Below are positions 17,190-37,347 of a stretch of 64,000 nt of DNA, piece after piece. Below the pieces are notes generated by a model, which had not been told where the DNA came from, made no database searches, and saw only the letters and a program-made list of their open reading frames with translations. Each line of letters starts with the position of its first letter. Position 1 is the first letter of the stretch. A program made the position numbers and the translations under genes. The stretch is from positions 4,903,501 through 4,967,500 of the forward strand of contig NZ_CP134772.1 in NCBI RefSeq assembly GCF_031882575.1. Direction: 5' to 3'. This DNA is from Pseudomonas sp. VD-NE ins (GTDB taxonomy: Bacteria > Pseudomonadota > Gammaproteobacteria > Pseudomonadales > Pseudomonadaceae).

Positions 17190-18566
17190 TCAGACGGATT
17201 CAGACGAGCCATCCTGGCTCGCTTCAAATAACGCCATGGCCTCGACATGTGCCGTCTGAGGAAACATATCGAGAATCCCGGCACGTTTTAACCGGTAGCC
17301 CTGCTTGATCAATTCGACCGTGTCGCGCGCCAGAGTTGCAGGGTTGCACGACACATACACCAACCGTTTGGCACCCAGGGTCGCCAACTTGCGAACCACC
17401 TCGAAAGCACCGTCACGCGGTGGGTCCAAGAGTACCGCAGAAAAGCCGTTTCCGATCCACTGGGCATCGGTCAAAGGCTGGGATAAATCGGCTTGAAAAA
17501 ACTTTGTGTTATGCAAATTGTTACTAGCCGCGTTGGCTTCCGCGCGATCGACCATCGTCTGCACGCCTTCCACCGCAACGACTTCGCGCACGGTTTTGGC
17601 CAGTGGCAAGGCGAAGTTGCCCAAGCCGCAGAACAGATCCAGCACACGCTCGTCGCTGCCGGGTTTCAGCCAGTCCAGCGCTTGCGCGACCATGGCTTCG
17701 TTGACGCCGGCATTGACCTGAATGAAGTCACCCGGTCGGTACGCCAGATCCAGATCCCACTGCTCCAGGCGATAACCCAGCGACTGGGTGGCATCGACCG
17801 GTTGCGGCTCGCCTTCGCCATGCAGCCACAATTGCGCTTCATGGAACTGGCAGAATTCTTTGAGAATCGTCAGGTCCGCTTCGGACAACGGCGCCATATG
17901 CCGCAGCAACACCGCCAGAGACGAGCCGCTGAACAACTCGACATGCCCCAGCGCCTGCGGTTTGCTCAAACGACGGAGCATCTCCGGCAAACGGGTCATG
18001 ATCGGTTGCAAGGGCTGTACCAGCACCGGGCATTCGCTGATGGCGACAATGTCCTGGCTGCCAGCGGCACGGAAACCCACTTCGAGTTTCTTCGCTTTCA
18101 TGTCCCAGCGCACGGCGATGCGGGCGCGACGGCGATAGCCGAATTCGGGACCGGTCAGCGGCGCTGCCCACTCTTCAGGTTCGACACCGGCGACACGCGA
18201 CAATTGCTCGGCGAGCATGCGCTGTTTCAGGGCAAGCTGTTCGCCGTGGGGCAAATGCTGGACGCTGCAACCGCCGCAACGGCCGGCGTGCTGACACGGT
18301 GCCGGGCGACGCAATTCGCTGGCCTTGAACACGCGCTCGGTGCGCGCTTCGACCACTTTGCCGTGAGCGCCAAGCACCCGCGCTTCGACCTCTTCACCGG
18401 CGAGGGCGCCGAGGACGAACCAGGTTTTGCCTTCGAAAAAAGCGATACCGCGACCGTCATTGGCCAGGCGTTCGATGCTCAAACGCTGCTTTTTGCCGGT
18501 CGGGATTTGCACGGCCTTGCTGCCGCCGGTGGGCTGGAAGCGCAGGCCTCTCTCGTGCTTGGCCAT
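17190..18566 (-). CDS. rlmD: 23S rRNA (uracil-1939-C5)-methyltransferase
   Basis: A 458-residue SAM-dependent methyltransferase (formerly RumA/YgcA). It has an N-terminal TRAM domain (about 20-80), a [4Fe-4S] cysteine cluster in [13 protein letters not shown] plus SECPVL, a SAM site [16 protein letters not shown], and the catalytic cysteine in [14 protein letters not shown]. Its start codon overlaps the cysM stop (TGATG), so the two are translationally coupled. Order cysM-rlmD-relA-mazG is conserved in Pseudomonas. Confidence 0.95.
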
Positions 18567-19468
18567 CAGTTGGGCGCGTCGAAAATGCCGGTCGACAGGT
18601 AACGGTCGCCACGGTCGCAGATGATCGCGACGATCACCGCGTTTTCAACTTCTTTGGACAGGCGCAGCATCGCTGCCACCGCACCACCCGAGGACACGCC
18701 GCAGAAGATACCTTCTTCGCGGGCCAGACGACGGGTCACGTCCTCGGCTTCGCTTTGCGCCATGTCGACGATGCGATCAACGCGATCAGCCTGATAGATC
18801 TTCGGCAGGTATTCCTGCGGCCAGCGGCGAATACCGGGAATGGCCGAGCCTTCCATCGGTTGCAGACCGACGATCTGCACCTTGTCGCTCTGCTCTTTCA
18901 AGTAGCGCGACACGCCCATGATGGTGCCGGTGGTGCCCATCGAACTGACGAAATGGGTGATGGTGCCCTGGGTCTGACGCCAGATTTCCGGACCGGTGGT
19001 GGTGTAGTGCGCCTCAGGATTGTCGCCATTGGCGAACTGATCGAGCACCTTGCCACGGCCTTCGGCCTCCATGCGCTGCGCAAGATCGCGGGCGCCTTCC
19101 ATGCCCTCTTCCTGGCTGACCAGAATCAGCTCGGCACCGTACGCGGTCATCGCCGCTTTACGTTCGGCGCTGGAGTTGTCGGGCATGATCAGGATCATCT
19201 TGTAACCCTTGATCGCAGCGGCCATGGCCAGCGCGATCCCGGTGTTGCCCGAGGTCGCTTCGATCAGCGTATCGCCGGCCTGGATCTGCCCGCGCAACTC
19301 GGCGCGAGTGATCATCGACAACGCCGGACGGTCCTTGACCGAACCCGCCGGGTTATTCCCTTCGAGCTTGAGCAATAGGGTGTTGCTGGTAGCGCCGGGC
19401 AGGCGCTGCAAACGCACCAGCGGCGTGTTGCCGACGCAATCGGCGATGGTTGGGTACTGCAGGGTCAT
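18566..19468 (-). CDS. cysM: cysteine synthase B
   Basis: A 300-residue PLP enzyme that makes cysteine from O-acetylserine and sulfide or thiosulfate. The PLP lysine is in [11 protein letters not shown], the phosphate-binding loop in [12 protein letters not shown], and GTTGTIMG is the second phosphate clamp. The start [20 protein letters not shown] at 19468 is preferred; the open frame extends 13 codons upstream. The 450 bp upstream holds a tandem repeat rather than a gene. Confidence 0.95.
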
Positions 19469-19560
19469 GGCGTATTCGCAATCCAGACGTGCGGGGGCGC
19501 CTATCATACCGGCAAACCCGCGCAGGCCATATCACGCAAAGTGCGGTGCTTATGGTTTAT

Positions 19561-19954
19561 GGGAATAAGCAGCAATAGTCTCACCACTGGTGAGACTTTT
19601 ACGTCGGGTCATCTTTGTTTGCGGCGATGCGAATGGCCTCATCGCTGGCAAGCCAGCTCCCACAGTGGTTAGTGTTGCGCCATCAATTATGTCAGCAGTG
19701 CTGACACTCTCTTGTCCTGTTCCACTATCTGGGGGTGAAACATATTCCCTGTGGGATGGGAGTAAGCAATAAAAGTCGCACCAGTGGTGCGACTTTTACG
19801 TCGGGTCATCTTTGTTTGCGGCGATGCGAATGGCCTCATCGCTGGCAAGCCAGCTCCCACAGTGACCCGTGTTGCTCTATTAATAGTGTCAGCAGTGCTG
19901 ACACTGTCTTGTATTGCTCAAACAATCTGCGGGTGAAACACATTCCCTGTGGGA
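19561..19954. repeat. tandem duplication of a 197-bp unit with two palindromes and a REP each
   Basis: Unit 1 is 19561-19757 and unit 2 is 19758-19954; they align base for base at an offset of exactly 197. Each unit holds a first palindrome (19578-19596, GTCTCACCACTGGTGAGAC; 19775-19793, GTCGCACCAGTGGTGCGAC) followed by TTTT, a REP half (19641-19664; 19838-19861), and a second palindrome centred on GTCAGCAGTGCTGAC (19691; 19888). Differences in the first palindrome are compensatory. The region lies between cysM and the kinase gene and holds no coding sequence I can support. Confidence 0.9.
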
Positions 19955-21342
19955 GCTGGCTTGCCAGCGATAGCGTCAGTCGGCGCAACACCGTCATCCG
20001 CCAGCAACCGCAAATTCAGCCGCAACCCCGCCCTGCCATTCTCCGCCCAAATCCTTCCGCCCTGACGCTGCACGGCATTGCGCGCGATGCTCAGCCCCAA
20101 GCCAAAACCGCCGTCCCCAGGGCGCGAGCCATCGAGGCGGGTGAACGGTGAGAAGATCCGTTCCAGATCCCCTTCCGCCACCCCGCCGCCCTGATCTTCC
20201 AGCCACAGGTGCCAGTAATCACACTCGCGCCGTCCATCAAGACGCACGATCCCACCCGCCGGCGAATGCCGAATCGCGTTGCGCAAAATGTTCTCCAGCG
20301 CCTGCGCCAGCGTATTCAGGTTGCCGCGCACCCAGCATGAGGACTCGACCGAACACTGCAATTGCAGACTCGGCCAGCCGCTTTCATAACAGGCATTGTC
20401 GGTGAGCATTTCCCACAGGGCCTGGATCTGAATCGCCTCGTCGGGCAATGGCGAGCGCTCGGTATCGAGCCAAGCCAGTTGCAGGGTGTCTTCGACCAAG
20501 CGTTGCATGCCGTCGACTTCGCGACCGATACGTTCGCGTAGCTGCACCAAGTCTTGCTCGCTTTCACTGGCCACGCGCAATCGGCTCAACGGCGTACGCA
20601 ACTCGTGGGACAAATCACGGAGCAATTGCTGTTGCAGGGCGACGGTCGATTGCAGACGCTCGGACATGGAGTCGAACGCCCGCGCCAGCTCGCCGAGTTC
20701 ATCCGGGCGCTGGGTGATGCCGCTCGACAACCGCACATTCAATTGATCGGCGCGCCAGGCGTTGGCCTGTTCACGCAGGTTGTTCAGCGGCACCACCAGC
20801 AACCGATACAGGCCGACGCACAGCAATAAAGTGAACAGACCAGGAATCACGCCGTTGGTGATGACGCGCCAGAACAGCCGATATTTACCCGGCAGAAATC
20901 GCTCGGGCAATTCGATCACCAGACTGCCGGCGGCGGGCTCTTGAGGGAATGGAATACGTAACCACGGCCGGCCTTTCTTGTGGATCGGCCAGTCGAGACC
21001 GCGCAAGAAGGTCAAGTGCTGGATTTCCTGTTCATTCAGCGGATCACTGCTCAACGACTGCAAATTGCCGCCGATGACGCCAACCCAACTGGCTTCGCGC
21101 AATTCCATGCTCTGCAACCAGTCATCGACCCCGCTGCGGCCGCCGTGCTGCCACGCCTGTTCCGCTTGCGCGGCGTAACGCGTCAGGGTGCCCCGCGCTT
21201 CGTCGGAGAGGAACTGGTTGCGCTCCTCCATATAACGGCCCCACGACCAGCTCAGCCAGATCATCAGCAGACAAAATGCGACCAGCAGAAACGCCAGTTT
21301 CCAGAACAGTGAATGCCGCCCCGGCAGTTCAGAGCGTTTCAT
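19918..21342 (-). CDS. two-component sensor histidine kinase (at the pirS position)
   Basis: A 474-residue membrane kinase: a transmembrane segment at about 12-34, a periplasmic domain (about 35-160), a second segment at about 163-185, HAMP at about 188-240, H-box LLRDLSHELRTPLSRLR, N-box ALENILRNAIRH, and G-boxes DQGGGVAEGD and GFGLGLSIA. It overlaps its response regulator gene by 14 bp. In P. aeruginosa the kinase PirS occupies this position between gacS and cysM; orthology is inferred from synteny. The last ~20 residues (IAGKPAPTG and following) are encoded by a REP and the end of the 197-bp repeat, so the natural C-terminus has been replaced or extended. Confidence 0.85.
   Translation of the reverse strand: MKRSELPGRHSLFWKLAFLLVAFCLLMIWLSWSWGRYMEERNQFLSDEARGTLTRYAAQAEQAWQHGGRSGVDDWLQSMELREASWVGVIGGNLQSLSSDPLNEQEIQHLTFLRGLDWPIHKKGRPWLRIPFPQEPAAGSLVIELPERFLPGKYRLFWRVITNGVIPGLFTLLLCVGLYRLLVVPLNNLREQANAWRADQLNVRLSSGITQRPDELGELARAFDSMSERLQSTVALQQQLLRDLSHELRTPLSRLRVASESEQDLVQLRERIGREVDGMQRLVEDTLQLAWLDTERSPLPDEAIQIQALWEMLTDNACYESGWPSLQLQCSVESSCWVRGNLNTLAQALENILRNAIRHSPAGGIVRLDGRRECDYWHLWLEDQGGGVAEGDLERIFSPFTRLDGSRPGDGGFGLGLSIARNAVQRQGGRIWAENGRAGLRLNLRLLADDGVAPTDAIAGKPAPTGNVFHPQIV
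19948..19971. repeat. REP element inside the 3' end of the kinase gene
   Basis: TGTGGGAGCTGGCTTGCCAG followed by CGAT is a complete half-REP of the GGGAGCTGGC family. On the minus strand it is read in frame as IAGKPAPT near the C-terminus of the kinase. Confidence 0.88.
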
Positions 21343-27134: not shown

Positions 27135-27538
27135 TGAAACGCTTTGCCCTGACCGCTATGGTCGGTGTGGGTCTGGTGGGGTGCGCGGCAGAACCTGTGC
27201 AACTGCAACAGAACCGCAGCTACATTCTGGAGTGGATCGGCGAGCGGCCGCTGATGGATTACAGCCACCTGACCGTGACCCTGGGCGATGACGGCCGCGC
27301 CTACGGCAACGGTGGCTGCAACCATTGGTTCGCGCCGTACACGCTGGAAGGTGACAAGCTGACCTTCGGCAAAATCGGCAAGACCCGCAAGCTCTGTGCA
27401 CCGGCATTGATGGAGCAGGAGCAACGCTTCCTGCAGGCGCTGGAGCACGTCCAGCGCTGGGACATCTCGCCGATCGAGCAGATGCGCTTCTGGCCGGCTG
27501 AAGGCAAGCCTTTGCGTTGGTGGCTCGAAGAGGGTTAA
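27134..27538 (+). CDS. META-domain lipoprotein (HslJ-like)
   Basis: A 134-residue exported lipoprotein. The N-terminus MKRFALTAMVGVGLVGCA is a type II signal with a lipobox ending in Cys. The body carries the META/HslJ pattern: LTVTLGDDGRAYGNGGCNHWFAPYT, with the GxGxCN core, and KTRKLCAP with the second conserved cysteine. META proteins are linked to heat or toxin resistance in other bacteria; the role here is not known. The start overlaps the preceding stop. Confidence 0.8.
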   Translation: MKRFALTAMVGVGLVGCAAEPVQLQQNRSYILEWIGERPLMDYSHLTVTLGDDGRAYGNGGCNHWFAPYTLEGDKLTFGKIGKTRKLCAPALMEQEQRFLQALEHVQRWDISPIEQMRFWPAEGKPLRWWLEEG

Positions 27539-27542
27539 AAAG

Positions 27543-27749
27543 CCCTCACCCTAACCCTCTCCCAGAGGGAGAGGGGACTGATTGAGGGATATTGGAGAGG
27601 TACGCCGACCTGAACGAGTGCAACTGAATCCATAATCGACTGGATCTGGCTTTGGTGAATCCATAATCGACTGGTTTTTTCAGGTCGATGTACCTCGCCA
27701 GACACCTCGGTCGGCTCCCTCTCCCTCTGGGAGAGGGCTGGGGTGAGGG
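27543..27749. repeat. MITE-like element, copy A (207 bp)
   Basis: The ends are imperfect 33-bp inverted repeats beginning CCCTCACCCTAACCCTCTCC at the left and ending GGGAGAGGGCTGGGGTGAGG at the right. No coding capacity. It fills the gap between the convergent META and TlpA-like genes. It is 31 bp longer than copy B at 37172 because TGAATCCATAATCGACTGG occurs twice (27625 and 27656). Confidence 0.85.
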
Positions 27750-37154: not shown

Positions 37155-37171
37155 AGCGCCAAATCAAAAGC

Positions 37172-37347
37172 CCCTCACCCTAACCCTCTCCCAAAGGGAG
37201 AGGGGACTGATTGGGGGATGCTCAAGAAGTACGCCTGCCTGAAACTTCGCTTTTGAATCCATAATCGACTGGCTATTTCAGGTCGATGTATAACGCCAGA
37301 CACCTCGGTCGGCCCCCTCTCCCTCTGGGAGAGGGCTGGGGTGAGGG
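37172..37347. repeat. MITE-like element, copy B (176 bp)
   Basis: Same ends as copy A at 27543 (CCCTCACCCTAACCCTCTCC ... GGAGAGGGCTGGGGTGAGGG), and the shared internal blocks CAGGTCGATGTA and GCCAGACACCTCGGTCGG. It has one copy of TGAATCCATAATCGACTGG. It lies between convergent genes, as copy A does. Confidence 0.85.

What the first reader, a model, noticed from the sequence alone, without database searches (positions are those of the whole stretch)
19561..19954. Tandem 197-bp repeat with compensatory changes in its palindromes
Seen: two units aligning without gaps at offset 197, each with two palindromes and a REP half. In palindrome 1, unit 1 reads GTCTCACCA/TGGTGAGAC and unit 2 GTCGCACCA/TGGTGCGAC: both arms changed together. 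Unit 2 also has longer stems (AAAAGTC..GACTTTT; AGTGTCAGCA/TGCTGACACT). Inference: the stem is selected for structure, for example as an RNA hairpin or a dimer-binding site, or the unit is a mobile non-coding element.
Basis: seen in the sequence. Interest (0 to 1): 0.75.

Follow-up and report, generated by a model that had tools for sequence, protein, structure and literature searches.

The report
Relic self-binding sites of YhcG nuclease
The palindromes are leftover DNA-binding sites of a lost nuclease gene, and they point to a widespread gene family (YhcG) in which each gene seems to carry, inside its own coding sequence, the palindrome that its own protein reads.

Summary
The tandem unit and its paired-arm palindromes are real, but not a mobile unit that mutated in place. 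In related Pseudomonas the same cysM-kinase gap holds a yhcG/DUF1016 nuclease gene, and the window's palindromes (T1, T2, T3) are alleles of one site inside its coding sequence. In 36 short gene-less loci all 46 detected gene relics are this site. Across the family (several bacterial phyla, one archaeal contig, viral contigs) the same codon position holds a gene-specific palindrome of about 27 bp: 191 of 214 genes, 227 inferred two-sided changes, beyond synonymous-codon shuffles. The N-terminal domain resembles ParB/Noc DNA-binding domains. Its recognition-helix residues co-vary with the palindrome base by base (Arg with G, Glu with C, aromatics with T), also in 66 phylogenetically independent pairs. 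Best reading: YhcG dimers read a palindrome embedded in their own gene; the window holds four relic sites of three specificities. Binding is inferred, not measured; what the nuclease does there is open. I found no description in the papers searched.

The parts
19578..19596 (-). Relic site T1 (palindrome 1, unit 1), GTCTCACCAcTGGTGAGAC; the flank AATAGTC..GACTTTTA extends it to 19574-19601. Minus is the strand of the lost yhcG reading frame.
   Evidence: identical in the arms to the coding site GTC TCA CCA CTG GTG AGA C (VSPLVRQ) of yhcG genes at the orthologous locus
19690..19706 (-). Relic site T3 (palindrome 2, unit 1), TGTCAGCAgTGCTGACA
   Evidence: same coding position as T1/T2 in L072, L076, L088 and others (GTG TCA GCA CTG CTG ACA C, VSALLTQ)
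19770..19798 (-). Relic site T2 (palindrome 1, unit 2), TAAAAGTCGCACCAgTGGTGCGACTTTTA
   Evidence: identical in the core to the coding site GTC GCA CCA CTG GTG CGA C (VAPLVRQ)
19885..19905 (-). Relic site T3 (palindrome 2, unit 2), AGTGTCAGCAgTGCTGACACT
19640..19665 (+). REP half, unit 1 (ordinary Pseudomonas REP, not part of the yhcG site)
19837..19862 (+). REP half, unit 2
19945..19970 (+). Opposite REP half closing the array; it overlaps the 3' end of the kinase reading frame
19559..19955 (.). Tandem array of two chimeric units between cysM and the sensor-kinase gene, where relatives carry yhcG
18566..19507 (-). cysM (flank of the locus, used to find orthologous loci)
19918..21342 (-). Sensor histidine kinase gene (other flank)

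Best explanation
The window's four palindromes are relic cognate sites of YhcG/DUF1016 nucleases whose genes sit between cysM and the kinase gene in relatives. Across the family nearly every yhcG gene carries its own gene-specific palindrome of about 27 bp (consensus AATT-N7-CA-N-TG-N7'-AATT, centre at codon position 1) in the segment that codes for the loop after the recognition helix. A YhcG homodimer reads this palindrome in double-stranded DNA with a ParB/Noc-like helix-turn-helix, each subunit reading one arm, so the arms must stay symmetric while the sequence drifts together with the recognition residues. SHOWN: the palindrome, its position, covariation beyond codon effects, residue-base coevolution, ParB-like fold (moderate), site-only relics. 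INFERRED: physical binding; that the intragenic site serves as a cis address of the gene, most simply an intragenic operator or loading site that ties expression and nuclease action to the gene's own locus.
For: Same locus, same strand, same coding position for T1, T2, T3. Relics: 46 of 46 intervals, in 25 of 36 short gene-less loci, lie at the site and none elsewhere, with 23 reference genes and with all 28. Codon shuffle: site score 9.9 vs 4.1; 45 of 93 genes beat all 1,000 shuffles, 84 of 93 have at most 50. 142 unique sites: 87% Watson-Crick over d1-13 vs 18-28% slid and 52% shuffled; 227 both-base WC changes at d2-13 on a tree made without the linker. Centre at codon position 1 in 190 of 191. 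Locus alleles: T1 with Pro 16 of 16, T2 with Ser 8 of 8, T3 with Arg 11 of 11. The recognition segment ranks 1 of 282 windows. Couplings: 104 with d7 (Arg-G 45 of 46), 107 with d8 (Phe/Trp/Tyr-T 31 of 31, Glu-C 8 of 8), 132 with d3, 135 with d4. In 66 independent pairs the top column of 296 for d3 to d9 is 132, 135, 108, 104, 104, 107, 107 (p 1.3e-10 to 6.8e-4). None of 30 gene pairs with an identical recognition segment differ at 3 or more of 7 stem bases. ParB/Noc/Spo0J DNA-binding domains fill ranks 1-12 for the N-terminal model; hhalign 92% against 27 diverse ParBs.
Against: No binding or cleavage was measured. Some genes lack a clear palindrome (23 of 214 without the site, below score 6 or even-centred; 9 of 93 with more than 50 of 1,000 shuffles as good), and 70 of 852 other gene windows also reach score 6. 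In E. coli one protein faces several sites whose d7-9 bases differ, yet 38 of 42 of these pairs are complementary (14 distinct sites picked by a fixed CAGAC core); a simple reading code does not explain that. Chemistry is not uniform: Lys goes with G or T at d8, Ser with C or T at d7. Columns outside the DNA-binding region also reach p about 1e-5 in the pair test (196 for d7, 162 for d12). hhalign against a narrow ParB set gave 0.4% and the best Foldseek E-value is only 0.08. The T1/T2/T3 link at the locus rests on three allele groups; L042, off the locus, has Ala with a T2 site. Isolated sites have mostly lost the AATT ends.
Confidence: 0.77

Rival explanations
1. The site is a DNA hairpin or cruciform recognised by structure: YhcG acts on the extruded palindrome; the stem sequence is free as long as it pairs.
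Against: Residue-base couplings with Arg-G, Glu-C and aromatic-T pairings, each concentrated on one or two base positions, are expected for sequence reading in duplex DNA, not for structure reading.
Confidence: 0.1
2. The palindrome acts in RNA: a hairpin in the yhcG mRNA (pausing, processing) or, in the window, a transcription terminator.
For: Perfect stems; T-rich flanks in several isolated copies; two terminator-like matches in the window, both palindrome 2 on the + strand (0.6 expected).
Against: No excess of G-U over A-C mismatches in the stem (d2-9: 21 vs 25); both flanking genes lie on the minus strand, and palindrome 1 is not called a terminator; no Rfam match at these sites in the window or in 7 yhcG-bearing loci.
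Confidence: 0.04
3. Symmetry is kept by mutation, not selection: template switching (quasi-palindrome correction) copies one arm onto the other at an old palindrome.
For: A perfect palindrome is a template-switch hotspot (general knowledge, recalled); tandem and isolated copies, and unread but paired bases in E. coli.
Against: Does not explain why the same codon position in diverse phyla holds it, nor why recognition-helix residues track the bases, nor site-only retention.
Confidence: 0.05
4. The unit is a mobile non-coding repeat (REP or RAYT-like).
For: REP halves interleave with the palindromes; unit number varies between strains; 3 of 12 distinct off-locus palindromes checked are not in a yhcG gene.
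Against: 2 copies of palindrome 1 in the genome; related palindromes in the flanks of 1 of 158 yhcG loci against 1.1 expected by shuffling; few copies per E. coli genome.
Confidence: 0.03

Closest known systems
ParB-parS and Noc-NBS (HTH_ParB domain)
   Same: Similar predicted DNA-binding fold, HTH register and palindromic site; parS sites also lie in coding sequences (nine of ten predicted ones in P. aeruginosa, PMC4368675, passages read).
   Different: parS (recalled) is one shared sequence serving chromosome segregation; here every gene has its own site inside its own reading frame, and the partner domain is a PD-(D/E)XK nuclease; no ParB CTPase domain is reported.
YhcG / DUF1016 (Pfam PF17761 + PF06250; PADLOC PDC-S02 phage-defence candidate)
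   Same: The genes tested from relatives are full members.
   Different: The window has no gene, only sites. I found no description of the intragenic palindrome or its coevolution in the papers searched.
Homing endonuclease genes (recalled)
   Same: Nuclease with a long cognate site; intact, broken and site-only alleles at one locus.
   Different: A homing gene interrupts its site; yhcG contains an intact site. No cleavage is shown.
REP/REPIN with RAYT transposases
   Same: Short palindromes between genes; ordinary REPs are interleaved here.
   Different: Low copy, mostly locus-bound, and in a nuclease CDS.

Membership tests
YhcG/DUF1016 gene at this locus | PF17761 and PF06250 domains in an open frame | tested here: not met
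   In the window only sites remain; no tblastn hit in the window locus. Two homologues from relatives have both domains.
YhcG self-site (as defined here) | Odd palindrome with core of a family allele type, retained symmetry | tested here: met
   T1, T2, T3 cores as in gene-borne sites; the AATT ends are eroded
ParB/Noc | HTH_ParB-type DNA-binding domain | tested here: inconclusive
ParB/Noc | N-terminal ParB CTPase domain | tested here: not met
   Only DUF1016_N and YhcG_C reported by Pfam for two homologues
PDC-S02 (PADLOC) | Profile match | tested here: met
   Best E 3e-135, 4e-136 and 2e-145 for three homologues; antiphage activity not tested
REP/REPIN | Dispersed, high-copy extragenic palindrome | tested here: not met
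   Palindrome 1 has 2 copies in the genome; met only by the REP halves
Intrinsic terminator | GC-rich stem followed by T run downstream of a gene on that strand | tested here: inconclusive
   Two + strand matches at palindrome 2; flanking genes on the minus strand
Homing endonuclease | Gene insertion disrupts the recognition site | tested here: not met
   The site is intact inside the gene

The most novel reading that the evidence does not exclude
YhcG is a self-addressed selfish or defence nuclease: it cuts or marks DNA at its own palindrome. Site-only alleles left after gene loss are then landing pads that let an incoming yhcG of matching specificity re-enter the same locus by break repair (a homing-like cycle), and arrays such as the window's T1+T3+T2+T3 record past invaders of three specificities.
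Probability: 0.22. Interest if true: 0.95.

Novelty: categorically new. Interest (0 to 1): 0.88.

Why it matters
A nuclease family listed as a phage-defence candidate, found from E. coli K-12 to a Methanoregula contig and viral contigs, has no established function in the papers seen. Finding that each gene carries the DNA site its protein appears to read gives a ready substrate for most members, a natural protein-DNA recognition code sampled across the family, and a direct handle on function. It also shows a coding sequence constrained to encode a protein and that protein's own binding site at once.

Tried and rejected
Rejected: duplication plus compensatory mutation in place; mobile unit; Rfam RNA; codon or amino-acid artefact; RNA helix by wobble test. 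My first reading, that E. coli site-only alleles are relics of the intragenic copy, was changed: occupied alleles carry a further palindrome just after the yhcG stop, and the site-only allele matches that position. My interim hairpin reading was demoted after the coevolution test. The first relic count included REP hits in the 5' frame extension and one apparent far hit (L081), which arose because its reference (L105) had no motif match, so the site position was not subtracted. One search removed the extension but skipped 5 of 28 references; one search used all 28 with the site taken from the palindrome itself and again found 46 intervals at the site and none elsewhere. Both exclude loci classed as broken, such as L133, whose fragments also lie elsewhere in the gene. 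Off-locus palindromes were checked only for the loci fetched and five (12 distinct places), not for every match in the 64 of 398 genomes. Paper searches with other wording gave no report; most subscription papers are not held. Two coupling signals (d2, d12) are spread over many columns and look like clade effects.

Full report
OBSERVATION. The window region 19559-19955 holds two units (164 nt, 88% identical at offset 197, then 33 nt at offset 198), each with palindrome 1, a REP half and palindrome 2. It lies between cysM and a sensor-kinase gene, both on the minus strand. In the 6.7-Mb genome palindrome 1 occurs only here, while the REP half is an ordinary dispersed REP.

WHAT RELATIVES SHOW. 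The 80 best of 398 Pseudomonas genomes by match to the cysM start were fetched at the orthologous gap. With the window, the 81 loci fall into 28 with an intact yhcG/DUF1016 gene (frame of 330 aa or more), 11 with a partial or broken one, 24 gene-less with a palindrome, 12 gene-less without by a fixed pattern (one of these, L069, has an eroded one) and 6 with another insert. The gene lies on the same strand as cysM and the kinase. Its coding sequence contains the palindrome just before the codons of the [LI]-x-W-[ST]-H motif. Alleles are T1 GTC TCA CCA CTG GTG AGA C (VSPLVRQ), T2 GTC GCA CCA CTG GTG CGA C (VAPLVRQ) and T3 GTG TCA GCA CTG CTG ACA C (VSALLTQ), that is, both palindromes of the window. 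The T1/T2 arm change is a Ser/Ala change paired with a synonymous AGA/CGA change. In the 40 longer loci examined, palindromes of these types at loci with a yhcG match lie within that match. Elsewhere in other Pseudomonas, 9 of 12 distinct places checked lie in a yhcG gene and 3 do not.

RELICS. Short gene-less gaps were compared by short-word blastn with intact locus genes (E up to 0.01). In 25 of 36 gaps there were 46 matches, all at the palindrome, 18-49 bp long, and none elsewhere in CDSs averaging 1,048 bp (23 references); with all 28 references the counts are the same. Longer remnants exist in loci classed as broken (L133). The search depends on detectable identity, so older relics elsewhere may be missed. 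Units 1 and 2 are different lineages in L058 and L059 (64-65% identical). The window's unit 2 is a T2 head on a type-A body, so the difference between units reflects joined alleles and gene conversion (inferred), not in-place compensation.

FAMILY-WIDE SITE. Among 93 class-level and viral genes (7 skipped for lack of the site region) the palindrome score at the site averages 9.9, against 4.1 for synonymous shuffles of the same protein and 3.9 for 852 other windows (70 of which reach 6). In 45 of 93 no shuffle of 1,000 reaches it, and in 84 of 93 at most 50 do. 80 loci from named genome contigs (the best 80 of 573, one subfamily as query) extend it to Bacteroidota, Spirochaetes, Acidobacteria, Planctomycetes and a Methanoregula contig; 71 of these 80 pass the threshold. 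Of 214 genes in all, 191 have an odd palindrome of score 6 or more, centred on codon position 1 in 190. For 142 distinct sites, arms are 87% complementary over d1-13, against 18-28% when slid and at most 54% when shuffled. Third codon positions follow the partner's second position. On a tree built without the linker, parsimony gives 227 changes from one Watson-Crick pair to another at d2-13, against 173 to or from a mismatch; at d2-8 it is 183 against 54. Consensus: AATT at one or both ends in 105 of 142, CANTG centre in 99 of 142, 96 distinct 7-nt stems.

E. COLI AS A SECOND CASE. K-12 yhcG has three tandem palindromes in its linker and one after the stop codon. Between alleles the latter differs on both arms (CTCCAGAC../CTGCAGAC..). 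943 of 5,426 E. coli genomes match at least 80% of a 201-bp query with a gltD-nanQ gap without yhcG but with one perfect palindrome; one of them, L387, was inspected. With a 36-nt query, places per genome are few (median 3, at most 6; not all inspected). Across 158 other yhcG loci, related palindromes in the 2.5-4 kb flanks are no more common than by shuffling (1 against 1.1).

COEVOLUTION. Residue numbers follow the stop-to-stop frame of L042; subtract 21 for the 338-aa protein. At the locus, T1 goes with Pro (16 of 16), T2 with Ser (8 of 8) and T3 with Arg (11 of 11) at the position before the recognition-helix NL; these are only three allele groups, and off the locus L042 has Ala with T2. 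Across 132 genes, of 282 protein windows the recognition segment is first in tracking stem sequence beyond whole-protein distance (0.44; mean 0.05, sd 0.12). The 8-residue windows next to the palindrome score lower (0.16 and 0.24 against 0.41), which speaks against mere linkage. Single couplings: 132 with d3 (Ser-A 39 of 45, Gly-C 15 of 15, Thr-G 46 of 64), 135 with d4 (Arg-C 55 of 58), 104 with d7 (Arg-G 45 of 46), 107 with d8 (Phe/Trp/Tyr-T 31 of 31, Glu-C 8 of 8, Arg-G 43 of 55), 102 with d6 (weaker). In 66 phylogenetically independent pairs the best of 296 columns is 132 for d3 (p 1.5e-7), 135 for d4 (1.8e-8), 108 for d5 (2e-5), 104 for d6 and d7 (1.1e-6, 1.3e-10), and 107 for d8 and d9 (4.7e-7, 6.8e-4); d10, d11 and d13 show no strong partner, d12 points to column 162 (3e-5) and d2 hardly varies. 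A few other columns reach about 1e-5. I take this as the signature of a homodimer reading its own gene's palindrome.

MECHANISM. Shown: the site, its selection, its coupling to the recognition helix, and preferential persistence of the site where the gene is gone. Inferred: binding in duplex DNA and a cis role at the gene's own locus (autoregulation or loading). PADLOC lists the family as phage-defence candidate PDC-S02. PMC1189080 (passages) predicts a PD-(D/E)XK nuclease of unknown function. The only YhcG found in the window's genome (31% identical to the query) has a different site, present once, so the T1/T2/T3 sites have no matching protein found there.

LIMITS. No experiment; phylogeny is only partly controlled; E. 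coli d7-9 variation remains unexplained. Literature: search listings; passages read from PMC4316617, PMC1189080, PMC6060812, PMC13155455, PMC4368675, PMC8494293 and PMC11341870. None of the passages seen describes the palindrome.

Noticed in passing
window 19918-19990: The kinase reading frame ends inside a REP, so its predicted C-terminus (DAIAGKPAPTG) is REP-encoded.
   Followed up: no
L386:6120-6240; L388, L389: E. coli yhcG linker holds two or three tandem in-frame palindromes whose d7-9 bases differ but stay paired, although one protein faces them all; unexplained by the reading code.
   Followed up: partly
L239, L243, L259, L284, L285, L299, L333, L337, L339, L340: yhcG linkers that seem by eye to carry repeated palindrome-coding modules.
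   Followed up: no
L390, L392, L396, L398: E. coli yhcG copies annotated as broken (frameshift, internal stop, or truncated beside a transposase gene).
   Followed up: no
L279, 38 nt upstream of the yhcG frame: A second copy of the gene's own palindrome lies just outside the frame.
   Followed up: no
L138, L141, L162 (palindrome near 1510): Palindrome-1-like sites away from cysM and outside any yhcG match within the fetched 3 kb; L141 has a different core and may be chance.
   Followed up: partly
window 27537-27749 and 37166-37347: A separate dispersed intergenic repeat pair (82% and 94% identical pieces).
   Followed up: no
G000:C1:3966429-3968000: Tandem REP array with a period of about 132 bp elsewhere in the genome.
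   Followed up: no
L081 (cysM-kinase gap): A relic that seems to fuse a T3 palindrome to half of a T2 palindrome, suggesting recombination between site types.
   Followed up: no
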